50,949 bases of DNA. Origin: a virus. Below are positions 1-50,949 of the stretch, in pieces. The DNA lies in the IMG/VR virus record IMGVR_UViG_3300044998_001404, positions 1 through 50,949 of that record. One strand, written 5' to 3'. The translations under genes and the position numbers were made by a program. Positions within the stretch are counted from its first letter, which is position 1, and each line of letters begins with the position of its first letter. The notes below the pieces were generated by a model. The model had not been told where the DNA came from, searched no databases, and saw only the letters and a program-made list of their open reading frames with translations.

Positions 1-474
1 GTGCAAAAGATGATGCTCAACGAAGTCGAGCTGGCCGAACGATGGAACCTCAGCCCGAAGACGCTCCAGCGATGGCGCAGCGAAGGCCGGGGCCCCCGGT
101 TCATGAAGATGTCCAAGCGCGTCGTCTACCCGATGGACGAGGTCCTCGATTTCGAGTCTCATGCCCTGCGGGCCTCGACCTGGGAGAGCGCCGGCGACGT
201 CGTCCGCCCGAGCGGCGCGAATCTGATGGACCCGCGCGAGATCGCGCACGTAACTGGTTTGCCCCTGTACATCTTCTGCCACAAGCAAACGCGCGACTCG
301 CTCGGCGTCCCGCATCGTCGGGTTCAGAAGTTGATCCGGTTCGACCGCGACGAGGTGATGGCGTGGGCCAGGCGCTGGCTGCAGGATGCCAAAGACCAGG
401 GCATTGCCGCGAAGGGCGACCCGGCAGGCCTGTACCGGTCGCTGCAGCAGGCCTTGGCTTCGCTGCCGGCCTGA
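1..474 (+). CDS. Helix-turn-helix DNA-binding protein (excisionase/MerR-like), 157 aa
   Basis: Residues 5-55 form a compact winged-helix domain of the HTH_17 type (ELAERWNLS, then LQRWRSEGRGP, then a VVYP strand and a helix with DEV). The remainder (about residues 75-130) ends in a second segment that could be a similar fold, with the RFDRDEVMAWARRWL pattern. The start shown is a GTG at the first base of the window; an ATG lies 9 nt further in, and a longer upstream start cannot be excluded. The N-terminal domain closely resembles the 70-aa protein at 43696-43908 at the other end of the element. It probably binds DNA as a regulator or recombination directionality factor; its target is unknown. 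Confidence 0.7.
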   Translation: MQKMMLNEVELAERWNLSPKTLQRWRSEGRGPRFMKMSKRVVYPMDEVLDFESHALRASTWESAGDVVRPSGANLMDPREIAHVTGLPLYIFCHKQTRDSLGVPHRRVQKLIRFDRDEVMAWARRWLQDAKDQGIAAKGDPAGLYRSLQQALASLPA

Positions 475-39256: not shown

Positions 39257-39560
39257 GGACACCTTCCTCATTGGTGTCCGCCGGGTTCAGGTAACCCGCC
39301 TTGGTCGCGATCTCTCGCATGAAGTCGGCCGACATGCCAACTTGATCGCACCACAACTCCAGGCGCCCGTCTCGGAAAAACCGCCTGGCTTCGGTACGCA
39401 GATGCTTTGATGGCGAGCACAGGTCAATGAACGCCTGCTTGATCACGGCTACGACCAGGCGCGACTCCGGGCACACAACGGCCACATGGCGCAGTAGCAG
39501 ACGTTCAAGCAGGGATGGGCCGATCAAGGGATTCTGGCGACGGATGGCACGTGAATTCAT
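39249..39560 (-). CDS. Small early protein, unknown
   Basis: A 103-aa protein (MNSRAIRRQNPLIGPSLLERLLLRHVAVV, then VVAVIKQAFIDLCSPSKHLRTEARRFFRDGRLELWCDQVGMSADFMREIATKAGYL). The last part (QVGMSADFMREIATKAGYL) may be a helix-turn-helix. It is coupled by overlaps to the nuclease and primase genes. The family is not recognised. Confidence 0.65.
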   Translation of the reverse strand: MNSRAIRRQNPLIGPSLLERLLLRHVAVVCPESRLVVAVIKQAFIDLCSPSKHLRTEARRFFRDGRLELWCDQVGMSADFMREIATKAGYLNPADTNEEGVHA

Positions 39561-40315
39561 AACTGCACCCCCGATGCGTTCACCCCCTGCTCGCTCCAAC
39601 AGCGGTCCTGCCATGCGCACATCCGGCATTCGAAGTGGGTTGAGTCATTGAACGCACGCGGCAGAAGTTCTCCCGCCTCTGTCGCCGTGATGACCTTCAC
39701 TGCCCGATCCGACATGCGCTGGGCCAGGGCCGCGTCAAAAGGCACGAGCTCGGTGTAGATCTCCATCGTGTCGGCGTTAAGCGCCGTGAAGATCGCCGGG
39801 TGCTCGGTGAGTTCGAGATAGGCTTGATAGATCGCCACTTGCGCGGCATAGACGGGTTTGGCGACGGCCAGGCCGCTTTTTTCAAGCTCGCGCCAGGACT
39901 TGTTTCCCAGGCATTTGCATTCCCAGAGTGCCGGATAGGCGAAGCCCTCCGGGCCACCGACGATGACGCCGTCGATATGGCCCTGCAGGCGGTCCTCGGC
40001 CACGGAAAAGCCGAACTGCTCGCCGTCGACCTTGCGGGTGCGCAGGTCGAAGCCTGCGTCCCGCAGCCACGCGACCATGCAGTCCTCTATGACGTGGCCG
40101 CGTTCGAAGATGCGTAGCATGCGTCCCTCGGTTTCGCGGCCCGGGTCGACCGGTGCCTGGGCGTACTCGAACTGAAGCTGTCGCTCGCAGGCCACGCCTA
40201 GACGCGATGCCCCAAGGTACTGGCGTTCCGGCTGACGGGCACGCGCCTGCTGCATCCCGGCGTCGACCAGGGCGGTGATCTGGCCGGAAAGGCTCGATGA
40301 GGAATTGAAGTCCAT
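39557..40315 (-). CDS. RecB/Cas4-like PD-(D/E)XK nuclease with iron-sulphur cysteines
   Basis: This 252-aa protein has a nuclease core with D115 (HIDGVIVG) and E132/K134 (WECKCLG), plus four cysteines C43, C230, C233 and C239 arranged as in the iron-sulphur Cas4/AddB group. A LGASRLGVACERQLQFEYA segment leads in. It probably acts as the exonuclease in recombination with the Sak4-like ATPase upstream. Its N-terminus overlaps the upstream gene by 118 nt. Confidence 0.85.
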   Translation of the reverse strand: MDFNSSSSLSGQITALVDAGMQQARARQPERQYLGASRLGVACERQLQFEYAQAPVDPGRETEGRMLRIFERGHVIEDCMVAWLRDAGFDLRTRKVDGEQFGFSVAEDRLQGHIDGVIVGGPEGFAYPALWECKCLGNKSWRELEKSGLAVAKPVYAAQVAIYQAYLELTEHPAIFTALNADTMEIYTELVPFDAALAQRMSDRAVKVITATEAGELLPRAFNDSTHFECRMCAWQDRCWSEQGVNASGVQL

Positions 40316-40794
40316 CCTGGCTTCCCTCCCTGCGGTTCTTCCCACGGCAGGTCCTCCTTCAAGTCGGCAAACGGATCACGGACGATCTCGGCCACCGGCA
40401 CGCCGCGCAGCGGCGGCGTGCTTGCCCGTTCGTGATGCTCGGTCAGCGCCTCGGTGTAGCGCGTGACGATGGCGTCGATCACCGTCATCGCCTCCGCTTC
40501 CGAATACGCCCCGAGCGGTTTGTCGAAGCCGATGTGCCCGGCCGCCGCTCCGAAGGCCTTGAGGCAATCGCGCATCGCCGCGATTTCGATATCGCTCGCA
40601 TCAACCATGTGCGCCTCCCCGCGCTCCTCGGCCGCCAGTCGCCGACCGTAGAGCGTGTGGAAGATGTCCTGGCAGCGACGGCTGCAGAACACCCAGTCGA
40701 GGGGATAGCGCCGGGGGTCGGCGATCTTGAAGCGACCATCCGAATGACCGAACCCCCGCGCCTGCCGTTTGCATACCCAGCATTTGCCGCTCAT
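40198..40794 (-). CDS. Zinc-binding early protein (DUF6511-like)
   Basis: This 198-aa protein starts MSGKCWVCKRQARGFGHSDGRFKIADPRRYPLDWVFCSRRCQDIFHTLYGR, a cysteine-paired (CWVC...CSRRC) small zinc domain, then a helical part (IAAMRDCLKAFGAAAGHIGFDKPLGAYSEAEAMTVIDAIVTRYTEAL). The reading frame runs 118 nt into the nuclease gene; its last 38 residues (after WEEPQGG) look less protein-like, so the natural end may be earlier. Confidence 0.7.
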   Translation of the reverse strand: MSGKCWVCKRQARGFGHSDGRFKIADPRRYPLDWVFCSRRCQDIFHTLYGRRLAAEERGEAHMVDASDIEIAAMRDCLKAFGAAAGHIGFDKPLGAYSEAEAMTVIDAIVTRYTEALTEHHERASTPPLRGVPVAEIVRDPFADLKEDLPWEEPQGGKPGWTSIPHRAFPARSPPWSTPGCSRRVPVSRNASTLGHRV

Positions 40795-41003
40795 GCATGG
40801 CAGCCTCCCGCCTGCGCGCGCTGCCGGGCACGGACGACGTGCCCGGCACAGCAGGCAATGAGCTCGACGTAGTCGTTGCGGATGGCGGTCGTCCCGATGC
40901 GCACACCCATCGGATGGCGACAGCGGGCGATGCGCAACCCGCCGATGTCGCTGGCGCTCGACCGGTCGAGATGGCGGCAGTTGCCGCAGCGTTTTCCTGT
41001 CAT
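40791..41003 (-). CDS. Small cysteine-rich early protein
   Basis: A 70-aa protein with MTGKRCGNCRHLDRSS..., ARCRHPMGVRIGTTAIRNDYVELIACC; cysteine spacing suggests a zinc finger. It overlaps the following gene by 4 nt. The function is unknown; it may be a partner of the neighbouring recombination proteins. Confidence 0.6.
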   Translation of the reverse strand: MTGKRCGNCRHLDRSSASDIGGLRIARCRHPMGVRIGTTAIRNDYVELIACCAGHVVRARQRAQAGGCHA

Positions 41004-41014
41004 GACCGACCTCC

Positions 41015-41632
41015 TCACTGCGCCCAGGCCGGCTTGCCGGGAACGGCCGGACGCTGCGCGTTCGCCTGTTGAGGTGCTGCCGGTGCAGGTGCAACGGCAC
41101 TGCCACCGCCGGTCAGGGACTTGGAAGGCACGCCCATCAGGGCCGCGTAATCCTTGTGGTCGGGCTCGACAACGAGCTTCACCACGTTGCGGTCCTCGCC
41201 CTTGGCATCCTTCTCGACATCGACGCGGGCCAGGAACTCGATGCCGTCCAGTTCGTGAAAGCCCTGGATGCGGCGGGCGGCGGCGGCCTGGGGCGAGTTG
41301 TCCTGGGGATGGACGTTGCGGGCGGAATTGAGGATGCCCCGGATCATGCTGCGCCCCATGTTCCCCCAGGCCGGGCCTTTCGGCGAGTGCAGGCCGATGT
41401 TCGACCACATCTTGCGGCGGGCATAGGGCCCCTCCAGCACGACGAACTCGCAGGCGAGATAGACGCTGCCGGTATCGAAGCTCTGGGTGGCATAGCCTCC
41501 GCTCCAGCCCTGCGCCGGATCGTCATGGCCGCCCGGCTTGATGGTCATGCGCACCTTGACGGGGGTGCCCTTCGGAATGAGATCGAAGCCCTGCTGTTGT
41601 TCGGCGTCGTTGAAATCGGTCCAGGTGTTCAT
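41015..41632 (-). CDS. Single-strand-binding-like partner of the Sak4 ATPase
   Basis: A 205-aa protein with beta-rich core (IPKGTPVKVRMTIKPGGHDDPAQGW, SFDTGSVYLACEFVVLEGPYARRKMWSNIGLHS, FLARVDVEKDAKGEDRNVVKLVVEPDHKDY) and a disordered Pro/Ala/Gln-rich tail ending in PAVPGKPAWAQ, features typical of phage single-strand-binding proteins. It is next to the ATPase gene, as in many Sak4-type recombination modules. Assignment is by context and features. Confidence 0.65.
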   Translation of the reverse strand: MNTWTDFNDAEQQQGFDLIPKGTPVKVRMTIKPGGHDDPAQGWSGGYATQSFDTGSVYLACEFVVLEGPYARRKMWSNIGLHSPKGPAWGNMGRSMIRGILNSARNVHPQDNSPQAAAARRIQGFHELDGIEFLARVDVEKDAKGEDRNVVKLVVEPDHKDYAALMGVPSKSLTGGGSAVAPAPAAPQQANAQRPAVPGKPAWAQ

Positions 41633-41643
41633 TACGTGTCCTT

Positions 41644-42462
41644 TCAGTGATGGATGGCGGCGTTGTCGCCAGCGCATTTGCGAATGAGCTTCAAAAGGTT
41701 CGGCTCCTCGACGAGGTCGAGTCGACCGGAGCGGTCTTTGGCGGGATAGCCCCAGGGATTGAGCGTCTGGCAGACGAAGGCGCGGTAAAGCTCGCCCTCG
41801 TCGGTCTTGAGTTCGGCCAGCGTCACGACTTCATCGACGATGCCGGGCAGTTCCAGCGCGGTCTTCGAGCCCTCGATCTGCGGCACGAAGACCCTGCGGT
41901 TGAAATCGTCCAGGCGCTCGTCGAGGATGGCGACGAAGATGACGTTCTTGTCCCGCGCGTGCTGTAGATGGGTCAGTGCGGCGATCATCTCGGTGCCGAG
42001 CAGCCCGTAGGCGCCCCGGGTGTCGGGCTTGCCGGTGCGGTCGGAGAATGCCTGTGGCTGCGCCTTGGCCCAGGTCAGGGCGAGGCGCGAGAGCACGGTG
42101 ATCGAGTCGACGAAGTAGGTGTCGTACTTCGCCAGCCGGGCCGGGTCGCCGTAGCCTTCGCAGACGTGCCGGTAATGCGCCTCGGAAAATGGCGCGTCCG
42201 CAGGCAACGCCGGGTTCGGACCGGCGAGAAACACCACGAGGTCACGGAATTCCGGCCAGGTGGCTGGCCGGACGCAGTCGCCGCGCCAGGCCTTGACGGC
42301 CAAGTCGCCCGCCTCGAGATCGACGAACAGGGTCGAGGCCTCGGGCAAGGTCTTGAGCTGGCTGGTCTTGCCGATACCACTCTTGCCGAGCAGGGCGAGC
42401 TTGGCGCCGCTCTTTTGCGCGAACCGTTCGTCGGCGGTGATGATGCGAAGAGGCTTGTCCAT
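41644..42462 (-). CDS. RecA-like ATPase (Sak4-type single-strand annealing/recombinase)
   Basis: A 272-aa P-loop ATPase with Walker A GKSGIGKTSQ (26-35), an FVDLEAGD segment (46-53) and Walker B YFVDS (116-120). The pattern and length match Sak4-like phage recombinases with a truncated RecA core, which pair with a single-strand-binding protein and exonuclease, as found here. Likely role: replication-linked recombination. Confidence 0.85.
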   Translation of the reverse strand: MDKPLRIITADERFAQKSGAKLALLGKSGIGKTSQLKTLPEASTLFVDLEAGDLAVKAWRGDCVRPATWPEFRDLVVFLAGPNPALPADAPFSEAHYRHVCEGYGDPARLAKYDTYFVDSITVLSRLALTWAKAQPQAFSDRTGKPDTRGAYGLLGTEMIAALTHLQHARDKNVIFVAILDERLDDFNRRVFVPQIEGSKTALELPGIVDEVVTLAELKTDEGELYRAFVCQTLNPWGYPAKDRSGRLDLVEEPNLLKLIRKCAGDNAAIHH

Positions 42463-44112: not shown

Positions 44113-44580
44113 TCAGGCCAGCGGCCGAAACCCCAGCAACCGTCGCTGCTCATCCCAGTCCACAGGCATCTCGGCCTGCCGGCCCCGGATCGCGTGAAGA
44201 TTGAGGTGGCGCGGTTGCCTGCCATCCAGAATGGCCTGCACGATGTCGGGTGCGAGGCGCGTGAGCCGCAATACCTCGGCGACCCAGCCGGGCTCCAGCT
44301 TCAGTTGCCGCGCCAGTTCCGTGGCATTGGCGACCTCGCCGCTGTCGAGCAGCTTTTGCCAGTAGAAAGCCTTGCCGATCGTGCGAATCATGGGCAAGTC
44401 GAAGGATGAGCGGACCTTGGCATCCTCCTGGCCGGGCGGCGCAATCAGCAGTTTGCGGGTGTGCCGACGCTTGATGGTCAAGGGGACGAAGGTGACGGCC
44501 TGGCCCGAGCTTTGGTATTCCCGCGAAGATCCCGCCACCGATATCTCGATCTTGCAACGTTGCTGGGTTGATTGTCTCAT
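44113..44580 (-). CDS. Helix-turn-helix accessory protein of the recombinase cassette
   Basis: This 155-aa protein has a helix-turn-helix of ParB type (LDSGEVANATELARQLKLEPGWVAEVLRLTRLAPDIVQAILDGRQPRHLNL, about residues 85-135) after a basic N-terminal part (ISVAGSSREYQSSGQAVTFVPLTIKRRHTRKLL). Its start overlaps the recombinase stop (ATGA). Proteins like it are regularly found directly downstream of recombinase/DUF2924 pairs, probably as DNA-binding partners. Confidence 0.75.
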   Translation of the reverse strand: MRQSTQQRCKIEISVAGSSREYQSSGQAVTFVPLTIKRRHTRKLLIAPPGQEDAKVRSSFDLPMIRTIGKAFYWQKLLDSGEVANATELARQLKLEPGWVAEVLRLTRLAPDIVQAILDGRQPRHLNLHAIRGRQAEMPVDWDEQRRLLGFRPLA

Positions 44581-46025
44581 GCCATCACCTCCTCGCCCTG
44601 ACCGAGGTGCCCCAAGGTAGGCGCCTCCTTCTGCTCCACAACAAAGGGGTGCTGGGCCAGTTCGCGCCGGAACCGGTGCCACCCGTCTTCCCGCCAAACG
44701 ATGTCGAGACCATCTGGGTGCAGTTGCACACGCTCGATCAGCAGCCGCATGATGCGGTGCTGTTCCACCGGGAACATCTGCGCCCAGATGTCGCCGATCC
44801 GGCGCATGGCCACCACGATCATGGCTTCATCGAGATCGGGTTGCTCCTGCATGGCCAGCACTTCGCGCCACACGCCGATGATCATTTCGGGCTCCTGCAA
44901 TACGCGCAGGACCTGCGTCAGCACGGCTGATTCGATTTCAGCGGCTGGCATGGGTCCCATGCTGCGCTGGCCGGGGATGCGTGATGCACCGGCAGCCTGT
45001 CGCTTTTCCAGGTAAGAAACGTAGTAGTGGTAACGCTTGCCGTTCTTCTTCTGCGTGTAGGTCGGCAACATGCGCTGACCGTCAGGGGCGTACAGGAATC
45101 CCGCCAGCAGCGCCGGGGTCGCGTTGTACCGGTCTCGCGTCATGCTGCGCTTGCGTTGTGCAATGATCGCCTCGACCGCCTCCCATTGCGCCGTCGAAAT
45201 GATGGGCGGGTGTTGGCCTTTGAAGACCTCACCCTTGTGCGTGATTTCGCCCAGGTACAGGCGGTTGCGCAGCAGCTTGAACAGGTACTGCTGGTCGATG
45301 ATCCGACCGTGATGGAACTTTCCGGTCTGGGTTTCCCAGGACTTGGTGGTGTGGCCTTCCACCTGGAGCTCGCGCACCAGACGCGCCGCCGATCCATGCT
45401 CGGCGTAACGCATGAAAATGTCGCGCACCAGCGCCGCTTCCCTTTCGTTGACGACGAGCTTGCGATCCTTGACGTCATAACCCAAGGGCGGCACGCCGCC
45501 CATCCACATGCCCTTGGCCTTGCTGGCGGCAATCTTGTCGCGGATGCGTTCACCCGTGACTTCCCGTTCGAACTGGGCGAAGGACAGCAGAATGTTGAGC
45601 GTCAGGCGCCCCATGGAGGTGGTGGTATTGAACTGCTGAGTTACGGACACGAACGAGACCCCGTGCCGATCAAAGACTTCCACCAGTCTCGCGAAGTCCG
45701 GCAGGCTGCGCGTGAGGCGGTCGATCTTGTAGACTACGACGATGTCGATCTTTCCTTCCTCGATGTCGGCCATCAATCGGCGCAGCGCCGGCCGCTCCAT
45801 ATTGCCACCGGAAAAGCCGCCATCGTCATAACCATCGGCCACAGCGATCCAGCCTTCATGGCGCTGGCTGGCAATGTAGGCAAGCCCCGCATCACGCTGC
45901 GCCTCCAGGCTGTTGTATTCCATGTCCATGCCTTCATCGGTGGACTTGCGGGTGTAGACCGCACAGCGCTGCTTGGGGGTAGTAGCAGGCATTTGCGTGT
46001 TGGAGTATGGGACTGGCCCTCTCAT
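44577..46025 (-). CDS. Large serine recombinase
   Basis: A 482-aa serine site-specific recombinase. The catalytic region is RCAVYTRKSTDEG with Ser28, followed by YDDGGFSGGNMERPALRRLM and KIDRLTRS with R103/R106, then a recombinase domain (GVPPLGYDVKDRKLVVNEREAALVRDIF) and a C-terminal region. The zinc-ribbon stretch usually carrying paired cysteines reads LLAGFLYAPDGQRMLP here, without cysteines. It probably catalyses integration and, with a partner, excision. It overlaps DUF2924 and the HTH gene by 4 nt on each side. Confidence 0.9.
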   Translation of the reverse strand: MRGPVPYSNTQMPATTPKQRCAVYTRKSTDEGMDMEYNSLEAQRDAGLAYIASQRHEGWIAVADGYDDGGFSGGNMERPALRRLMADIEEGKIDIVVVYKIDRLTRSLPDFARLVEVFDRHGVSFVSVTQQFNTTTSMGRLTLNILLSFAQFEREVTGERIRDKIAASKAKGMWMGGVPPLGYDVKDRKLVVNEREAALVRDIFMRYAEHGSAARLVRELQVEGHTTKSWETQTGKFHHGRIIDQQYLFKLLRNRLYLGEITHKGEVFKGQHPPIISTAQWEAVEAIIAQRKRSMTRDRYNATPALLAGFLYAPDGQRMLPTYTQKKNGKRYHYYVSYLEKRQAAGASRIPGQRSMGPMPAAEIESAVLTQVLRVLQEPEMIIGVWREVLAMQEQPDLDEAMIVVAMRRIGDIWAQMFPVEQHRIMRLLIERVQLHPDGLDIVWREDGWHRFRRELAQHPFVVEQKEAPTLGHLGQGEEVMA

Positions 46026-46492
46026 GCCAATGCCCCCTGACGCTTGGGCGCGGGTTGGCGCAGTCCGAAGAATGCCGGTCCCGACCAGGGAGTGCCAGTG
46101 ATGGCCTTGGCCACGCCGGACAAGCTCTTGTAGGTGCGGGTCTGGTATTCGAAACGCCCGTCGTCCAGGACTTTGACCTGATGGGGGATGCCGTTGTACT
46201 CGCGGATCAGGGTAGTGCCCGGCGCCAGCTGGTTTTCTGCTCGGCGCTTCTGGTTGGGTACCTCGCCGGTCTCACCGATTTTTTCCAGGCGGCGCTTGAG
46301 CGATTGCGACATCGCGCCAAAAGCCTCCTCCTGGATCTTGTACGCCAGCCGACTTTCAAGCCAGGTACGGTGGTGGTGGCCGGGGCGACGATCAAAGTAC
46401 TGATCCCAGAGCGCCCAGAGGTTTTCCATCGGCAGGCAGGGCAATTGCGCGAGGCGCGCGGCGACGGCCTCTTTGCTCGCGTGTGTCGTCAT
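46022..46492 (-). CDS. DUF2924 protein
   Basis: A 156-aa protein matching DUF2924 (ALWDQYFDRRPGHHHRTWLESRLAYKIQEEAFG, PGTTLIREYNGIPHQVKVLDDGRFEYQTRTYKSLSGVAKAITGTPWSGPAFFGL). DUF2924 is regularly encoded next to serine recombinases of prophages and is likely an accessory factor for the integration reaction. It overlaps the recombinase start (ATGA). Confidence 0.9.
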   Translation of the reverse strand: MTTHASKEAVAARLAQLPCLPMENLWALWDQYFDRRPGHHHRTWLESRLAYKIQEEAFGAMSQSLKRRLEKIGETGEVPNQKRRAENQLAPGTTLIREYNGIPHQVKVLDDGRFEYQTRTYKSLSGVAKAITGTPWSGPAFFGLRQPAPKRQGALA

Positions 46493-46819: not shown

Positions 46820-47146
46820 TCAGAGGCCGGTAGCCACGAAATAGCTCGCCGCAGTGGTCAGCATGCCAACGCCCAAAAGCGCAAAACCCAAGATCAAAAG
46901 GACGAAGCCAAGTTTACTTTCGATGTCGAGCAGATGTTTGGTTACGCCGCCAACGATAGGGTCGCTTTGCCGTTGATTGGCAGCGATCCTGGCCAACTGA
47001 TCGATAGACTGTTCGTGGGCCACCAGGCAGTAAACAACCCACTTAAGGATTGCCTTTACCCGCCATGCCAACAAGATGGAACCAATGCCAGTAGTGAGTG
47101 GGCCTAAAACCTTCAGCAACGTGTGAATATCAGCGGGTAATTGCAT
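46820..47146 (-). CDS. Small two-helix membrane protein
   Basis: A 108-aa protein with two predicted membrane segments (LLKVLGPLTTGIGSILLAWRV near 10-30; LGFVLLILGFALLGVGMLTTAASYFVA near 80-106) and a charged middle (VAHEQSIDQLARIAANQRQSD). The ATG at 47146 has GGAG 8 nt upstream. It lies between the recombinase cassette and the switch genes; it might be a superinfection-exclusion protein, but this is a guess from size and location. Confidence 0.65.
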   Translation of the reverse strand: MQLPADIHTLLKVLGPLTTGIGSILLAWRVKAILKWVVYCLVAHEQSIDQLARIAANQRQSDPIVGGVTKHLLDIESKLGFVLLILGFALLGVGMLTTAASYFVATGL

Positions 47147-47187: not shown

Positions 47188-48141
47188 TCAGCGCACTGGC
47201 GGCTGACCGTTGCGCACGAAACGATCGAAGGTGTTTTCAAGACCATCGTCGTCATCTATCTTGTCGCGCTCCCAGGGCTTGACCTCGGGCGGTAGGACCA
47301 GCAGCGTCATCGTTTGACGGTAGAAATCAGACGCGATGCGCATCTCCCGCGCCACCATGCCCTCGGGCTCGTGCGGAAACCAGATGCTCGCATCGATCGG
47401 CGTGCCCAGCCGATCGACGTTGGTGTCCGTGCCCAAACGTGTGGCACTCCTGGCAGGCAGTGGCCGTCGGTGACCGTTGGCCAGCCGTTTGTTCAGATGC
47501 ATGGAGAGCCACTTGCCCGACTCACTGCCGCAAGCCCACTGAACGATCCCGTTCTGCGACATGACCAGCACCGCACGCTGTGGTGTGAGCTCCAGCCACT
47601 TGAGAATGGCTGACGTCATGGACACGCCATACCGATCCGCACACGCGCCGAGCACGTCCAGATCGATGGTCGCCCCCTGGATCTGCCGACGGTAATCATC
47701 CGCAGGCATCAGCAGGTAGGACGCAAAGGTGTTCGCCTCGAACTCAATCTTCCGCTCGTCGCTGTCCCATTGGGTGGTGTCCACCTCGCTGCAGTTGAAA
47801 GACGTCTGCAGATGGCGATGCACCAGGTAATGCCCCAACTCGTGTGCCAGCGTGAAGCGGATTCGCCCGGGCGAGCTGATCGCCTGGTTGTAGATGATCG
47901 CCCAGTTGCCCTTGCCGGGCTCATCGGCATTCAGGTTGAACAGCGCCCCTTCGAGCTCCGGATCCATCGCCTCGCCCCGAATGCTGATCGGCTCGCCGGT
48001 CTGGAACGTGCCCGGCACTTCCCGAATCAGCGCTTCCACATCGACCGGGAAACGGTCGCCACCGTGAACGGCGTGAAACTGATCCAAGAGCTTGTTCAGC
48101 CGGTTGGCCCAAGGCGCCGGCTTGTTGGGCGGCGCACTCAT
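47188..48141 (-). CDS. ImmA/IrrE-type metalloprotease
   Basis: A 317-aa protein of the ImmA/IrrE (DUF955) family. The zinc site is HELGH at 100-104 (TLAHELGHYLVH) with E133/E135 in KIEFEANTFASYLLMP. In the ImmR/ImmA pair such enzymes cleave the repressor after DNA damage to trigger excision. It follows the XRE repressor gene and overlaps it by 4 nt (ATGA). The C-terminal third (LGTPIDASIWFPHEPEGMVAREMRIASDFYRQTMTLLVL) is probably a regulatory domain. Confidence 0.85.
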   Translation of the reverse strand: MSAPPNKPAPWANRLNKLLDQFHAVHGGDRFPVDVEALIREVPGTFQTGEPISIRGEAMDPELEGALFNLNADEPGKGNWAIIYNQAISSPGRIRFTLAHELGHYLVHRHLQTSFNCSEVDTTQWDSDERKIEFEANTFASYLLMPADDYRRQIQGATIDLDVLGACADRYGVSMTSAILKWLELTPQRAVLVMSQNGIVQWACGSESGKWLSMHLNKRLANGHRRPLPARSATRLGTDTNVDRLGTPIDASIWFPHEPEGMVAREMRIASDFYRQTMTLLVLPPEVKPWERDKIDDDDGLENTFDRFVRNGQPPVR

Positions 48142-48464
48142 CCTTGGGTTTTCTTCAGCGTCTTGAGGATCTCGAGGAGCTGATGCTTGGTCTCGGGTTT
48201 GAGCGTCTTGTAGTTGCGGAAGAACGCCTTGTCGAAGGCATCCTCGGGCTGGTCGGCCTGTTCGTTGTGCGCCAGAAACTCGGGCGTGACGTTCAGGACG
48301 GCGGCGATGCTGGCCAGTTTTTCCATGGTGGGGTTGGCGTCGTCGTTATTTTCCAACTCCCACAGATAGCTCTTGCTCATGCCGGCTGCGGCGGCCAGTG
48401 CGTCGAGACTCAACTTCTGCTCACGGCGCAGCCTGCGAATTTTGTCACCCAATGGGGTTGCCAC
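48138..48464 (-). CDS. XRE-family repressor
   Basis: A 108-aa protein with a Cro/CI helix-turn-helix (KIRRLRREQKLSLDALAAAAGMSKSYLWELENNDDANPTMEKLASIAAVLNVT, residues 8-62) and a short helical tail (DKAFFRNYKTLKPETKHQLLEILKTLKK). It starts at GTG with AGGAG 7 nt upstream. It probably represses lytic genes and is destroyed by the adjoining ImmA-like protease. It is divergent from the gene at 48732 across a promoter region. Confidence 0.85.
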   Translation of the reverse strand: MATPLGDKIRRLRREQKLSLDALAAAAGMSKSYLWELENNDDANPTMEKLASIAAVLNVTPEFLAHNEQADQPEDAFDKAFFRNYKTLKPETKHQLLEILKTLKKTQG

Positions 48465-48731
48465 GGTTTCTCCTGTGTTCTCTCAGCTCCGCTCATGCAG
48501 CGGATCAGGTAGCGTTTTCCACAGATCGAGATGTTACGTTATTTCGAACGAATCCGCACCGGCTTGACAACACAATCATCCACCGTTAAATTCCATCAAA
48601 CACCCGATATAGCGAACAAAACAATTTTGCTTTGTTGTGCGATACGGTGCTGAGAACAGTGTAACCAACCCAGGCCTCTCGCGCACACAAGAAGTCATCG
48701 GCACGGCGGCCCAGCAAACAGGAAAAACAAG
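48465..48731. promoter_or_regulatory. Divergent promoter region of the switch
   Basis: No gene fits this 267-nt gap. On the plus strand TTGACA (48564-48569) is followed after 17 nt by TAAATT (48587-48592), a plausible promoter for the downstream unknown genes. A near-palindrome from ACAAA (48616-48620) to TTTGT (48631-48635), matching at 16 of 20 positions, may be an operator. The plus-strand start at 48732 is preceded by an AGGAAA ribosome site. No firm minus-strand promoter could be picked out. Confidence 0.5.
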
Positions 48732-49967
48732 ATGGCCGCCTTCAACTACCGTCAACTGATCCGCCAGGTCCCTGCGCGGACTTGGGCGTTTTACTTTCAG
48801 TCTCGCAAGCTGGAACTGCCCGGCGAGCTTGCCGGCGACAAGCTGGTCAGCACCGTCATCGACATCATCGGTGCCTTGCCTGCGGCCCAGGGTTCGGCGG
48901 TGTATGCCGAATTGCGGCGCGTGCATGCCTTGGCCAACGGACGCGGGATCGATGCCCTGCGCAACACCGCCCCACCGGACTCCGCGATCCATGAGGATTT
49001 CACGAAGTTCTCCAGCGATGCCGAGCGCGCCTTGTGGGTCATGGCCAACTGGCCCGACCTGTTCGCCACCGCCGAGGCCATCTACGGGGTCAGCCTGCGC
49101 ATTGGCAAGCGTGGCTGGAAACGTTTGCAAGTGCCGCCGGTCGATGCGCTGTTCCGGGGCCAGGAAGATATTCACGCCCTCGAGGTGGCACTGGCCACCG
49201 CATTCACGCCAAGCAAGGGTACCCCGCGCGCTTGCCAGATCGACATCCTGGACCGACATTTGGATGGAGGCGTGCAACTAGGCATCCTCATCGAGGACAA
49301 CGCCCAGCGTCAGCTGGAATTCGGCGACGACAACCGGGCGCACTGGCGCGACATCCGGCCTCCCATGGCCATGGACATTGTGATCTACCCGGCCAGCGGC
49401 GTGATAGATGTGCTGGCGCCCGGCGGTGCCAAGACGCAGCAGACTTTGTTGGAGCACCTCGGCAGGCATGTCTTCAAGCAGGTGCTGCAGCCCAAGGACG
49501 TCGAGAAGCCGATGTTCTTCCTCAACCGTCTGCGGGATGGCTTCGAACTCTTCGATGGCAGTGAGTGCGATCTGGCCGCCCACCGGGTCGAGCGCATCCG
49601 TTTGTCGCAGGCGAAAGTGCGTGCCATCCATCCCCCGATTTGCGACTACCTGATCAAGCCGCCCGGCGAGAAGGACGCGCCCGATGTGCTCATCTGCCTG
49701 GCAAAGCATCAGATCAATCCCATCCTGATGGGACAGGGTTTCAATATCATCGATGCCGTGGTCTCGTTGTACTTCGAGCCGGCGCAGCCGGGCAAAGCCA
49801 GTCGCGTGCTGCATGCCGATCTCAAGCAAGGCGGGATCAGCAATCTGCGCGACATGGAAGAGGCTGACGCCCGCCTGGTGGAATCGCTGCTGCGCGCATT
49901 GGGTGTCATGCAGTCACCCGCATCGACCAAGCCGGTCGAGGAAGCCGTGGGGGCCGTGCATGAATGA
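48732..49967 (+). CDS. Unknown 411-aa protein beside the repressor
   Basis: The family is not recognised. The sequence looks folded throughout: helical parts (STVIDIIGALPAAQGSAVYAELRRVHALAN; AERALWVMANWPDLFATAEAIYGVSL), a beta-containing middle (MAMDIVIYPASGVIDVLAPGGAKTQQTLLEHLGRHVF), and a late acidic segment (ADARLVESLLRALGVM). No catalytic or DNA-binding motif is obvious. The stop overlaps the next gene start by 8 nt, so both are probably one operon, with the promoter in the switch region upstream. Confidence 0.7.
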   Translation: MAAFNYRQLIRQVPARTWAFYFQSRKLELPGELAGDKLVSTVIDIIGALPAAQGSAVYAELRRVHALANGRGIDALRNTAPPDSAIHEDFTKFSSDAERALWVMANWPDLFATAEAIYGVSLRIGKRGWKRLQVPPVDALFRGQEDIHALEVALATAFTPSKGTPRACQIDILDRHLDGGVQLGILIEDNAQRQLEFGDDNRAHWRDIRPPMAMDIVIYPASGVIDVLAPGGAKTQQTLLEHLGRHVFKQVLQPKDVEKPMFFLNRLRDGFELFDGSECDLAAHRVERIRLSQAKVRAIHPPICDYLIKPPGEKDAPDVLICLAKHQINPILMGQGFNIIDAVVSLYFEPAQPGKASRVLHADLKQGGISNLRDMEEADARLVESLLRALGVMQSPASTKPVEEAVGAVHE

Positions 49968-50733
49968 GACGGTCGCCGTCATGAACGACCAGGGGCTGGC
50001 AGAAATCTGCCGCCTGCTGGAACGCGAGGACATGCGGATCTCCCCAGACTCGGTCTGGCTTTCGAGTCGGCCCGGTTTCTATGGCCATCTGCTGGCCCTG
50101 GATGCCTTCGTCGTCAGCCGCGAGCGGGCGATAGACATCCTCTGCCCGGAGTGTGGCACAGAGTCCATGCGCCCGCAGCCACACGACGCGCCAGATTCAC
50201 AACCCTATCGCGGCTACTGCCCGGAATGCGGCTGGATTGGCCTGTCGAATCAACAGGCACACTTTTGGCAGGTGCAACCCCAGAGGCTGGCCAAATGGCT
50301 TTCAGCAGGATTGGGGCTGGCACCGCGCTATGCCGTCGAGCCCATCGTGGACAACGTGTTGTGGCGGCTGGGCGAGTTGGAACATCGGCGGCGGCGCCAC
50401 ACGGTTTTCTTTGGGCGGCGCCTGAACGCGATGTCCGATCAGGTGGCAGCCAAGCTGGCGCAGCTGGTGGCGCCCGGCGCTGAGGTGATCATCACGGCGG
50501 GTGAACCGGCATCCTTGCTCGGTACCGCCTTGGGCGATCGCCTGTTGGTGCCGCTGCGGGCGATCGCCCACATCCGCAAATCCGGCCTGGTGATCGAGAA
50601 CCTTGAAGCTTACCTGACCCGCCCAGCACCGGTGCAGGAATCGGCGGAGACCTCCCTGCGTCTGATGCACAGCCGGCGCGTGGCGCTCATCGATGGCAAG
50701 CCGATCGACCTCTCACCACAGGGGAACCTCTAA
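49960..50733 (+). CDS. Zinc-ribbon protein, partner of the preceding unknown gene
   Basis: A 257-aa protein with a zinc ribbon made of C62, C65, C87 and C90 (LCPECG...YCPECGW), followed by a helical and beta region (AKWLSAGLGLAPRYAVEPIVDNVLWRLGELEHRRRRHTVFFGRR; PGAEVIITAGEPAS). ATG 49960 overlaps the previous gene. Its last residues end exactly where an insertion-sequence end appears to begin, so the natural C-terminus may have been altered. Confidence 0.7.
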   Translation: MNETVAVMNDQGLAEICRLLEREDMRISPDSVWLSSRPGFYGHLLALDAFVVSRERAIDILCPECGTESMRPQPHDAPDSQPYRGYCPECGWIGLSNQQAHFWQVQPQRLAKWLSAGLGLAPRYAVEPIVDNVLWRLGELEHRRRRHTVFFGRRLNAMSDQVAAKLAQLVAPGAEVIITAGEPASLLGTALGDRLLVPLRAIAHIRKSGLVIENLEAYLTRPAPVQESAETSLRLMHSRRVALIDGKPIDLSPQGNL

Positions 50734-50788
50734 AAACCCATGAATTTCATGGAGCCTGAGCGAATGACGGCAGCGCAAGCGAAGGAAG

Positions 50789-50812
50789 CGGGCGTTTCGC
50801 CCGGTATTTTTT
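50789..50812 (+). terminator. Rho-independent terminator on the plus strand
   Basis: CGGGCG-TTT-CGCCCG (50789-50803) is followed by GTATTTTTT. It would end the transcript from the 48732-50733 gene pair just after the gene end and may belong to the insertion element. Confidence 0.75.
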
Positions 50813-50825
50813 CGGAATCTGCCTG

Positions 50826-50850
50826 GAATTGCTCAATCATTGAGCAATTC
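50826..50850. repeat. Perfect 11-bp palindrome in the IS end
   Basis: GAATTGCTCAA (50826-50836) and TTGAGCAATTC (50840-50850) pair fully around a 3-nt loop, downstream of the transposase stop on the minus strand. There is no T-run on the minus side. It may be a structural element of the insertion sequence. Confidence 0.6.
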
Positions 50851-50865
50851 CCGGGGCTCCGAGCC

Positions 50866-50949
50866 TCAGAAGGGCACGATTCGGGCCTCCTTGAGATAGA
50901 CCAGGCGCTTCAAGTTGTAAGTCGCCGCCGTCAGGGTCATGCCGAACTT
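50866..50949 (-). CDS. Transposase C-terminus (IS5-like), truncated by the window edge
   Basis: The last 27 residues of a transposase are visible (FGMTLTAATYNLKRLVYLKEARIVPF), a C-terminal pattern (TAATYNLKRLV) typical of IS5-group transposases. The rest lies outside the window, so family assignment is limited. Confidence 0.65.
   Translation of the reverse strand, partial: KFGMTLTAATYNLKRLVYLKEARIVPF

What the first reader, a model, noticed from the sequence alone, without database searches (positions are those of the whole stretch)
48732..50733. Unrecognised two-gene operon divergent from the XRE/ImmA switch
Seen: an unknown 411-aa protein and a 257-aa zinc-ribbon protein, coupled by overlap, with a plausible promoter and a near-palindrome upstream and a terminator downstream. 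No family comes to mind. Inference: controlled by the repressor, or a cargo system such as defence or replication control that uses the repressor/protease pair for regulation.
Basis: partly seen in the sequence, partly recalled or inferred. Interest (0 to 1): 0.55.

Follow-up and report, generated by a model that had tools for sequence, protein, structure and literature searches.

The report
RexA-like gene pair in prophages
Next to a predicted DNA-damage-sensing switch, bacterial viruses integrated in proteobacterial genomes often carry a conserved pair of unnamed genes whose first protein is predicted to resemble the lambda phage-exclusion protein RexA, which makes the pair a candidate new prophage-borne defence system; the copy in this window appears cut short by a jumping gene.

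Summary
The two-gene operon is real and conserved, but two details were misread. Gene B is not a 257-aa protein: an IS5-like element cuts it (316-327 aa in 13 relatives), and the "terminator" lies inside that element. A third gene (DUF2188), present in close relatives, is missing. The neighbouring XRE/ImmA pair matches the CapH/CapP models; CapHP is reported as an ssDNA-triggered regulator of immune operons. Two CGAAC sites flank the A promoter at fixed distances in 11 of 11 distinct regions. A has no Pfam, NCBIfam or PADLOC match; its predicted fold resembles CENP-N, RdgC and, more weakly, lambda RexA, published as related folds. B has a four-cysteine zinc ribbon and a weakly PD-(D/E)XK-like core. 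B follows A in 66 of 68 loci. The regulator differs between relatives (CapHP, LexA-like, M78, WYL; LexA-like needs 3 changes on the A tree). Single relatives lie beside McrBC, a multi-ubiquitin gene or a P4-type integrase; two carry a DUF3800 gene between A and B. Best reading: a DNA-damage-inducible RexA-like exclusion/defence pair with a soluble partner instead of membrane RexB. Defence is inferred, not shown; a lytic-switch role is the main rival.

The parts
48732..49967 (+). Gene A, 411 aa: N-terminal helical region (about 1-125) and RdgC/RexA/CENP-N-like core (about 126-400, predicted)
   Evidence: Intact ORF; PHROG_37634, function unknown, E 7.6e-92; no Pfam, NCBIfam or PADLOC family at E <= 1; fold from AlphaFold2, pLDDT 72, pTM 0.41, fold searches
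49960..50733 (+). Gene B, truncated: 257 aa, of which about 254 match relatives; zinc ribbon C62/C65/C87/C90 kept, C-terminal about 68 aa of relatives absent
   Evidence: weak zinc-ribbon matches, all under the curated cut-offs
50725..50949 (-). End of an inserted IS5-family-like element (boundary approximate); contains the terminator-like hairpin 50789-50803
   Evidence: 76 % identity to IS5-family transposase genes at 50857-50940; sequence departs from the relatives here; hairpin
48564..48592 (+). sigma-70-like promoter of A (TTGACA-17-TAAATT)
   Evidence: conserved in the alignment of the window and 41 relatives
48543..48552 (.). operator-like site 1, just upstream of -35 (TTCGAACGAA)
48604..48617 (.). 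operator-like site 2, downstream of -10 (CCGATATAGCGAAC; symmetric TTCGGTATACCGAA in relative L016)
48138..48464 (-). CapH-like XRE repressor, 108 aa
   Evidence: PADLOC capH E 2e-25; HTH_3 E 2.4e-13; only XRE/CI-like repressor found in the window with nine seed proteins
47188..48141 (-). CapP-like M78 (ImmA/IrrE) metallopeptidase, 317 aa, with HELGH motif
   Evidence: PADLOC capP E 5.8e-68; Peptidase_M78 E 1.9e-17; motif read from the translation
46022..46492 (-). DUF2924 protein of the linked integration module
   Evidence: PF11149 E 3.1e-47
44577..46025 (-). large serine recombinase (phage-type integrase)
   Evidence: PF00239 E 1.8e-39; phrog_95 integrase E 5.7e-110

Best explanation
The operon is a DNA-damage-inducible, mostly prophage-borne gene pair (A-B, in this clade also C = DUF2188). 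Proposed working: CapH sits on two operators flanking the A promoter and keeps it silent; single-stranded DNA, from damage or an infecting phage, activates CapP, which cleaves CapH and turns A-B-C on (inferred from the published CapHP mechanism). A is a DNA clamp of the RexA/RdgC/CENP-N fold (predicted). B is its soluble partner with a zinc ribbon, a nuclease-like core that probably does not cut, and a C-terminal region that looks winged-helix-like (inferred). Together they most likely act on foreign or damaged DNA to stop superinfecting phage, as RexAB-type systems do, but without a membrane RexB (inferred). Shown: gene order, linkage, differing regulators, site conservation, truncation. Not shown: any activity. 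In the window the system is probably crippled, since B is cut and C is absent.
For: capH/capP PADLOC matches; CGAAC sites at fixed distances in 11 of 11 distinct promoter regions; fold resemblance of A to CENP-N Z 9.5 (169 aligned, rmsd 5.0), RdgC Z 7.5 (203 aligned, rmsd 11.5, model 128-400) and RexA Z 4.6 (98 aligned), families that PMC11077077 relates (IML3/CHL4 being the yeast CENP-L/CENP-N, recalled); B after A in 66 of 68 loci, 31 of 33 clusters; regulators by 35 clusters: CapHP 18, S24 8, M78 alone 2, WYL 1, none found 6; S24 needs 3 changes on the A tree; A and B both recognised in 8 of 40 DUF2924 regions, so not fixed to them; DUF3800 gene between A and B in L161 and L163; neighbours multi-ubiquitin, McrBC, P4-type integrase by eye; operon at the prophage end in the window's group; DUF4747/CarolAnn (RexA-like) systems reported beside damage-responsive CapKS.
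Against: No sequence similarity of A to lambda RexA or RdgC (hhalign) and no DUF4747 match; model confidence is moderate, and the tool's own note puts the usual best Z of models without a clear match at 7 to 8. No RexB-like partner: B and its 17 aligned relatives show no hydrophobic stretch by eye, no predictor run. If CapHP is also the lysogeny switch (no other repressor found), A-B-C is silent in the lysogen and comes on with induction, unlike lambda rex. The defence-type neighbours are single cases; 6 of 35 clusters show no recognised regulator, and that label accounts for part of the 10 label changes on the tree. Among 18 closer B proteins E141, K207 and E213 are invariant, so an active site is not fully excluded.
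Confidence: 0.5

Rival explanations
1. A-B-C is an early lytic module of the prophage itself: switched on when CapH is cleaved, A (a RexA-like DNA binder) stabilises the lytic state or counters RecA, and B acts as an early transcription factor; any exclusion is a by-product.
For: lambda RexA biases the CI-Cro switch to the lytic side (PMC11077077); CapH is the only XRE/CI-like repressor found in the window; in the divergent clade the operon is followed, on the same strand, by Xis/HTH, Sak4, helicase, Cas4-exonuclease and primase genes.
Against: In the window's clade the replication module is inverted away from the operon, which ends the integrated prophage; A-B occurs beside a multi-ubiquitin gene (L130), McrBC (L119) or a P4-type integrase (L126), and in L131, with no serine recombinase in the fetched stretch; it is absent or unrecognised in 31 of 40 DUF2924 regions.
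Confidence: 0.3
2. A-B(-C) is an accessory of the serine integrase (recombination directionality factor or excision control).
For: A serine recombinase lies within 9 kb of A in 27 of 35 clusters; of the 8 without, L011, L012, L034 and L129 are cut by contig ends.
Against: The recombinase was found in 39 of 40 sampled DUF2924 regions, A and B in 8; A-B without the recombinase in L119, L126, L130, L131 and L038; two large proteins are more than a directionality factor needs (established knowledge).
Confidence: 0.08
3. A-B is a segregation or DNA-organising pair: the CENP-N-like fold would reflect binding near a centromere-like or replication site of the element.
For: Best structural matches of A are CENP-N and Chl4.
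Against: The same fold includes RexA and RdgC, which fit the phage setting better; the element carries an integrase; no iteron or parS search was made.
Confidence: 0.07
4. An ordinary housekeeping pair that happens to lie beside a phage switch.
For: None found.
Against: No Pfam or NCBIfam family for A; an A relative in only 12 of 300, 14 of 369 and 28 of 398 genomes sampled; mostly within a conserved mobile-element context.
Confidence: 0.03

Closest known systems
RexAB exclusion system (lambda; actinophage Rex-like; Pseudomonas putida RexABpp)
   Same: Two-gene pair, first protein with the RexA/RdgC-type fold (predicted here), carried by a temperate phage near its repressor (PMC11077077, PMC12894663)
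   Different: No sequence similarity; partner B is a zinc-ribbon protein and not a membrane protein; operon divergent from the repressor instead of downstream of it; regulators differ between relatives
DUF4747 / CarolAnn-type RexA-like systems
   Same: RexA-like protein in prophage-borne defence, also reported beside a DNA-damage-responsive controller, CapKS, in 17 of 443 cases (PMC13373217)
   Different: A does not match PF15931; different partner and controllers
CapH+CapP-controlled immune operons (CBASS and others)
   Same: The regulator pair matches the capH and capP models and stands divergent from the operon
   Different: A and B match no CBASS or other PADLOC gene (A none, B one weak match at E 0.016)
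ImmR/ImmA of ICEBs1 and TnSmu1
   Same: XRE repressor plus M78 protease controlling a mobile element after DNA damage (PMC10233336, passages)
   Different: Here the adjacent divergent target is A-B-C; the replication genes lie elsewhere
RdgC
   Same: Fold match over model 128-400
   Different: Extra N-terminal region, constant partner B, no sequence similarity, mobile

Membership tests
CapH/CapP regulator pair | matches to the curated capH and capP profiles | tested here: met
   PADLOC capH 2e-25, capP 5.8e-68
CapH/CapP regulator pair | HExxH zinc-protease motif and XRE HTH | tested here: met
   HELGH read in 47188-48141; M78 and HTH_3
CapH/CapP regulator pair | ssDNA-triggered cleavage of the repressor and derepression | not testable with these tools
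   needs biochemistry; mechanism as reported in PMC13373217 and PMC10904395 (passages)
RexAB exclusion system | RexA/RdgC fold of the first protein | tested here: inconclusive
   CENP-N Z 9.5, RdgC Z 7.5 and 6.9, Iml3 7.4, RexA 4.6 from a moderate model; consistent as a set, each weak or middling
RexAB exclusion system | detectable sequence relation to RexA | tested here: not met
   hhalign lambda RexA against A profiles: probability 0.1 and 1.9 %
RexAB exclusion system | RexB-like membrane partner | tested here: not met
   B and 17 relatives carry a zinc ribbon and, by eye, no hydrophobic stretch; no transmembrane predictor was available
RexAB exclusion system | excludes superinfecting phage | not testable with these tools
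   plaque assays needed
DUF4747 (PF15931) | profile match over cut-off | tested here: not met
   0 Pfam families for A at E <= 1
CBASS | CD-NTase in the controlled operon | tested here: not met
   A 0 PADLOC families; B only PDC-M14A at 0.016
PD-(D/E)XK nucleases (for B) | nuclease core fold | tested here: inconclusive
   FokI, N.BspD6I, Can2, EndoMS, HindIII at Z 4.5-6.0, all under 8; the list also holds other folds (ASFV RNA polymerase subunit 5.4)
PD-(D/E)XK nucleases (for B) | conserved catalytic D and E/D-x-K | tested here: not met
   no invariant acidic residue or lysine in residues 106-225 among 13 diverse B proteins; among 18 closer ones E141, K207 and E213 are invariant, not in the D...(E/D)xK spacing
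RdgC | sequence match to RdgC | tested here: not met
   hhalign E. coli RdgC against A profile, probability 0.7 %

The most novel reading that the evidence does not exclude
A-B is the core of an undescribed anti-phage system family of Betaproteobacteria and other members of their phylum: a DNA clamp sharing its ancestor with RexA, RdgC and the kinetochore proteins CENP-N/CENP-L, working with a zinc-ribbon, dead-nuclease-like adaptor, plugged interchangeably into CapHP, LexA-like, M78 and WYL damage sensors and sometimes extended by effectors (DUF3800 inserted between A and B; a multi-ubiquitin gene downstream).
Probability: 0.35. Interest if true: 0.78.

Novelty: new variant of a known kind. 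Interest (0 to 1): 0.6.

Why it matters
If right, the RexA type of prophage exclusion extends to a family without sequence similarity to RexA or DUF4747 and without a membrane effector, and it ties that fold to the DNA-damage controllers (CapHP, LexA-like, WYL) of bacterial immunity. Whether RexA-like proteins serve defence or the lysis-lysogeny decision is an open question in print (PMC11077077, Discussion); a family that changes regulators, is optional and also lies outside serine-recombinase elements would let it be tested. Either way the data give borders to an unannotated operon whose first gene has a relative in 28 of 398 sampled genomes of the phylum.

Tried and rejected
Rejected: B as a 257-aa family (truncation); the downstream terminator as the operon's own; CBASS and DUF4747 membership; sequence homology to RexA or RdgC; membership of the replication operon in the window's clade.

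Led nowhere: tblastn of A and B and of two distant A proteins in 50,697 phage records, and of A in plasmids: no match. PDB by sequence: nothing convincing, best E 0.28 for A and 0.066 for B, the latter small zinc-ribbon proteins. Fold search of A among viral models: four matches with E <= 0.001, TM at most 0.26, three of them unnamed proteins. Foldseek of B: no match at E <= 0.001. Rfam on window, L041, L018, L046: none. Terminase family phrog_2 in the window: no match. Near-identity search of the inserted end in plasmids: none; only the sensitive mode matched. A 410-413-aa/369-390-aa zinc-ribbon pair behind CapHP in L152, L156, L168 looked like an A-B analogue but shows no sequence similarity (hhalign probability at most 1 %).

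Literature: in open-licence PMC papers listed no description of this pair that I recognised; subscription papers were not searchable, and the original CapHP paper was not held, so its mechanism is cited through PMC13373217 and PMC10904395.

Limits and dropped rows. L008 was left out of the B alignment because its B reading contains a stop; L040's B matched in two pieces. The promoter alignment has 43 rows, of which L001 is the window again; 11 of the other 42 are distinct at 85 %. The table holds 74 A loci; A ORFs under 300 aa and ORFs scoring better as B were left out (L021, L022, L023, L164), and the short loci L047-L062 and L068-L111 were not used; 20 of the places were fetched with flanks. 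L166 was left out of the tree. The 40 DUF2924 regions were picked by hand from 115 matches for contig length and outside stretches already fetched for A, so 8 of 40 understates how often A-B is there. The profiles were widened with hits from the same loci, so 66 of 68 is not an independent test; with the narrower profiles B was seen beside A in 13 of the 20 newly fetched loci, two of the seven misses being contig ends. In one search L119 and L149 were labelled 'M78 alone' by hand. G001, the centre of the samples, is itself counted.
Full report
What is there. The window is an IMG/VR virus record of 50,949 bases. At its right end gene A (48732-49967, 411 aa) and gene B (from 49960) run on the plus strand with an 8-nt overlap. 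Divergent from them lie an XRE protein and an M78 metallopeptidase that match PADLOC's capH (2e-25) and capP (5.8e-68), then a small protein (46820-47146), DUF2924 and a large serine recombinase.

B is broken here. Relatives at 82-92 % identity in this clade carry on past the point where the window's B ends; 13 relatives aligned at full length, from several clades, have 316-327 aa. In L025 a 74-aa DUF2188 gene, here called C, follows (E 1.1e-23); C is found beside the pair in 45 of 74 loci. In the window the relation stops at about B residue 254, and DNA beyond it matches IS5-family transposase genes of Pseudomonas and Thauera plasmids at 50857-50940 (five records, 76 % identity). The contig ends there, so an assembly join cannot be excluded.

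Promoter and operators. TTGACA-17-TAAATT at 48564-48592 is the only promoter-like hit in 48300-50949, one hit being within chance; what speaks for it is conservation. In 11 CapH-A regions distinct at 85 % (from the window and 41 relatives) a CGAAC begins 19 nt upstream of the -35 start in all 11, and another 48-50 nt downstream of it in all 11; 30 CGAAC/GTTCG in all against a shuffle mean of 6.6, maximum 14 of 500. In 6 of the 11 the downstream site is a dyad TTCG-N6-CGAA, such as TTCGGTATACCGAA; in the window it is not perfect. That places two repressor-sized sites around the promoter; that CapH binds them is inferred.

Relatives. A scan of viral contigs gave 22 loci and of one genome per species 22 more, titled mostly as betaproteobacteria; two carry Nitrospira and Bacteroidetes labels of metagenome bins, which may be mis-binned. 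The usual order is recombinase, DUF2924, CapP, CapH, then A and B. Besides loci cut by contig ends, the exceptions are L038, with no recombinase or DUF2924 recognised within 10 kb, and L028, where CapP is cut short and nothing more of the module follows. Two arrangements exist. In the divergent clade (47-68 % identity) the strand of A-B carries on, where the contig is long enough, into the relatives of L018's Xis/HTH, phrog_2480, Sak4, phrog_2300, helicase, Cas4-exonuclease and primase genes. In the window's clade these lie on the far side of the recombinase on the other strand. There the sequence shared by the prophages ends 2,794-2,892 bases after the start of A for nearly all pairs; exceptions are two pairs that share more flanking DNA (L027/L033, L030/L032), L004 with L032, and pairs ended by a contig edge. 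So A-B-C is the last operon before the prophage end.

A wider family. Profile searches of sampled genomes found A relatives in 12 of 300 (order, alignment A1), 14 of 369 (class) and 28 of 398 (phylum, both with the wider alignment A3). Of 74 A loci tabulated, 68 have at least 1.5 kb downstream, and 66 of these have B next on the same strand; by 80 % clusters it is 31 of 33. The exceptions are L128 (no B found) and L166 (A and B in one ORF). The profiles had been widened with these loci, so this is a description, not a blind test; with the narrower profiles B was seen beside A in 13 of 20 newly fetched loci.

Regulators differ. By 35 clusters the regulator beside A is CapHP in 18, a LexA-like S24 repressor in 8, an M78 protein alone in 2, a WYL protein in 1, none recognised in 6. 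Pfam supports L115, L119, L120, L121 and L128; L063 was named LexA-like by eye, the other S24 cases by similarity to L063, L120 and L121, L149 by its HELGH motif. On a tree of 34 A proteins CapHP needs 7 changes, S24 3, and all five labels, 'none found' among them, 10; labels are still more clustered than in shuffles (as low in 0 of 200), and the place of the long branch L149 is unsure. CapW/BrxR (WYL) and CapH+CapP are described as ssDNA-triggered controllers of BREX, Pycsar, CBASS and DISARM, and CapKS is found beside DUF4747/CarolAnn systems (PMC13373217, passages).

Optional and portable. DUF2924 occurs in 55 of 249 sampled genomes. Of 40 such regions, picked by hand outside stretches already fetched for A, A and B were both recognised in 8, two of them with A broken or fused to B (L164, L166), and B alone in one (L157); 31 showed neither. 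Very divergent pairs may be missed. A-B also occurs without the recombinase in the fetched stretch: L119 beside McrBC, L126 beside what reads by eye as a P4-type tyrosine integrase, L130 directly upstream of a gene with three Multi_ubiq repeats (the JAB- and E1-like genes after it are recognised by eye), and L131. In L161 and L163 a DUF3800 protein (3.7e-5 and 6.6e-5, over the cut-off) sits between A and B.

Folds. AlphaFold2 on 17 rows gave A at pLDDT 72, pTM 0.41. Foldseek's seven PDB matches with E <= 0.001 are CENP-N/Chl4 and RdgC; VIA-align gives CENP-N Z 9.5 (169 residues, rmsd 5.0), RdgC Z 7.5 over model 128-400 (203 residues, rmsd 11.5), Iml3 7.4, RnlA 5.7, RexA 4.6 (98 residues). Models without a clear match usually reach 7 to 8 at best (note), so each is middling, but the set is the one that the RexA crystal paper joins: RexA resembles RdgC, IML3 and CHL4 (PMC11077077, abstract, passages and Discussion; that these are the yeast CENP-L and CENP-N is recalled). 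There is no sequence relation to lambda RexA or E. coli RdgC. B's model (pLDDT 76, its last 50 residues under 50) gives FokI, N.BspD6I, Can2, EndoMS and HindIII at Z 4.5-6.0, beside unrelated folds. No acidic residue or lysine of residues 106-225 is invariant among 13 diverse B proteins, while the four cysteines C62, C65, C87 and C90 are; among 18 closer ones E141, K207 and E213 are invariant. That the C-terminal region is winged-helix-like is my reading of the sequence, not a test.

How it most likely works. Damage or an incoming phage makes ssDNA; CapP cleaves CapH; the A promoter opens; A clamps DNA, with B as zinc-ribbon partner. RexABpp of P. putida, a DNA-binding RexA with a membrane effector, is the nearest tested system that I saw (PMC12894663, abstract and one section). 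The partner differs here, so the effector step is open. The main rival is a role in the phage's own lytic decision, as argued for lambda RexA; in the window CapH is the only repressor of its kind that I found.

Verdict. Two details of the finding are artefacts of an inserted element, but the system is real and conserved: a candidate RexA-like exclusion or defence pair under DNA-damage control, a new variant of a known kind. Function is inferred.

Noticed in passing
L152:3401-6933, L156:10400-13947, L168:5749-9237: CapH and CapP (short M78) followed in the same direction by a 410-413-aa protein and a 369-390-aa zinc-ribbon protein (the L156 and L168 pairs have no Pfam family), and in L168 a sigma-70-region-2 protein after them. 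Same layout as A-B but no sequence similarity: a possible second, unnamed CapHP-controlled pair.
   Followed up: partly
L130:4862-9543: A-B directly upstream of a gene with three Multi_ubiq repeats and of what read by eye as JAB and E1-like genes: A-B in line with a bacterial ubiquitination-like operon.
   Followed up: partly
L161:11890-13032 and L163:4084-5214: DUF3800 protein inserted between A and B.
   Followed up: partly
window 39557-41677: The DNA helicase gene that relatives carry between the Cas4-type exonuclease and the phrog_2300 gene was not found in the window.
   Followed up: no
window 46820-47146: Small protein between CapP and DUF2924, recognised in some close relatives only (L002, L026, L027, L044, L067).
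   Followed up: no
L041:12500-12560: Conserved inverted repeat (ATCGGGTTCGAC ... GTCGAACCCGAT in most) between gene C and the prophage end in the window's clade; no Rfam match in L041.
   Followed up: partly
L046:4629-5501: OST-HTH/LOTUS protein (1.3e-8) beside CapP, same strand, in the second Cupriavidus element.
   Followed up: no
L157:6409-9235: B-like fragment, a CI-like repressor (named by eye) and an AbiJ_NTD3 protein (1.1e-36) beside DUF2924.
   Followed up: no
window 1-474: A second excisionase-like HTH_17 relative (51 % identity over 57 residues) at the far end of the record.
   Followed up: no
L038 and L039: Two copies of the element in one Extensimonas perlucida genome with equal profile scores.
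   Followed up: no
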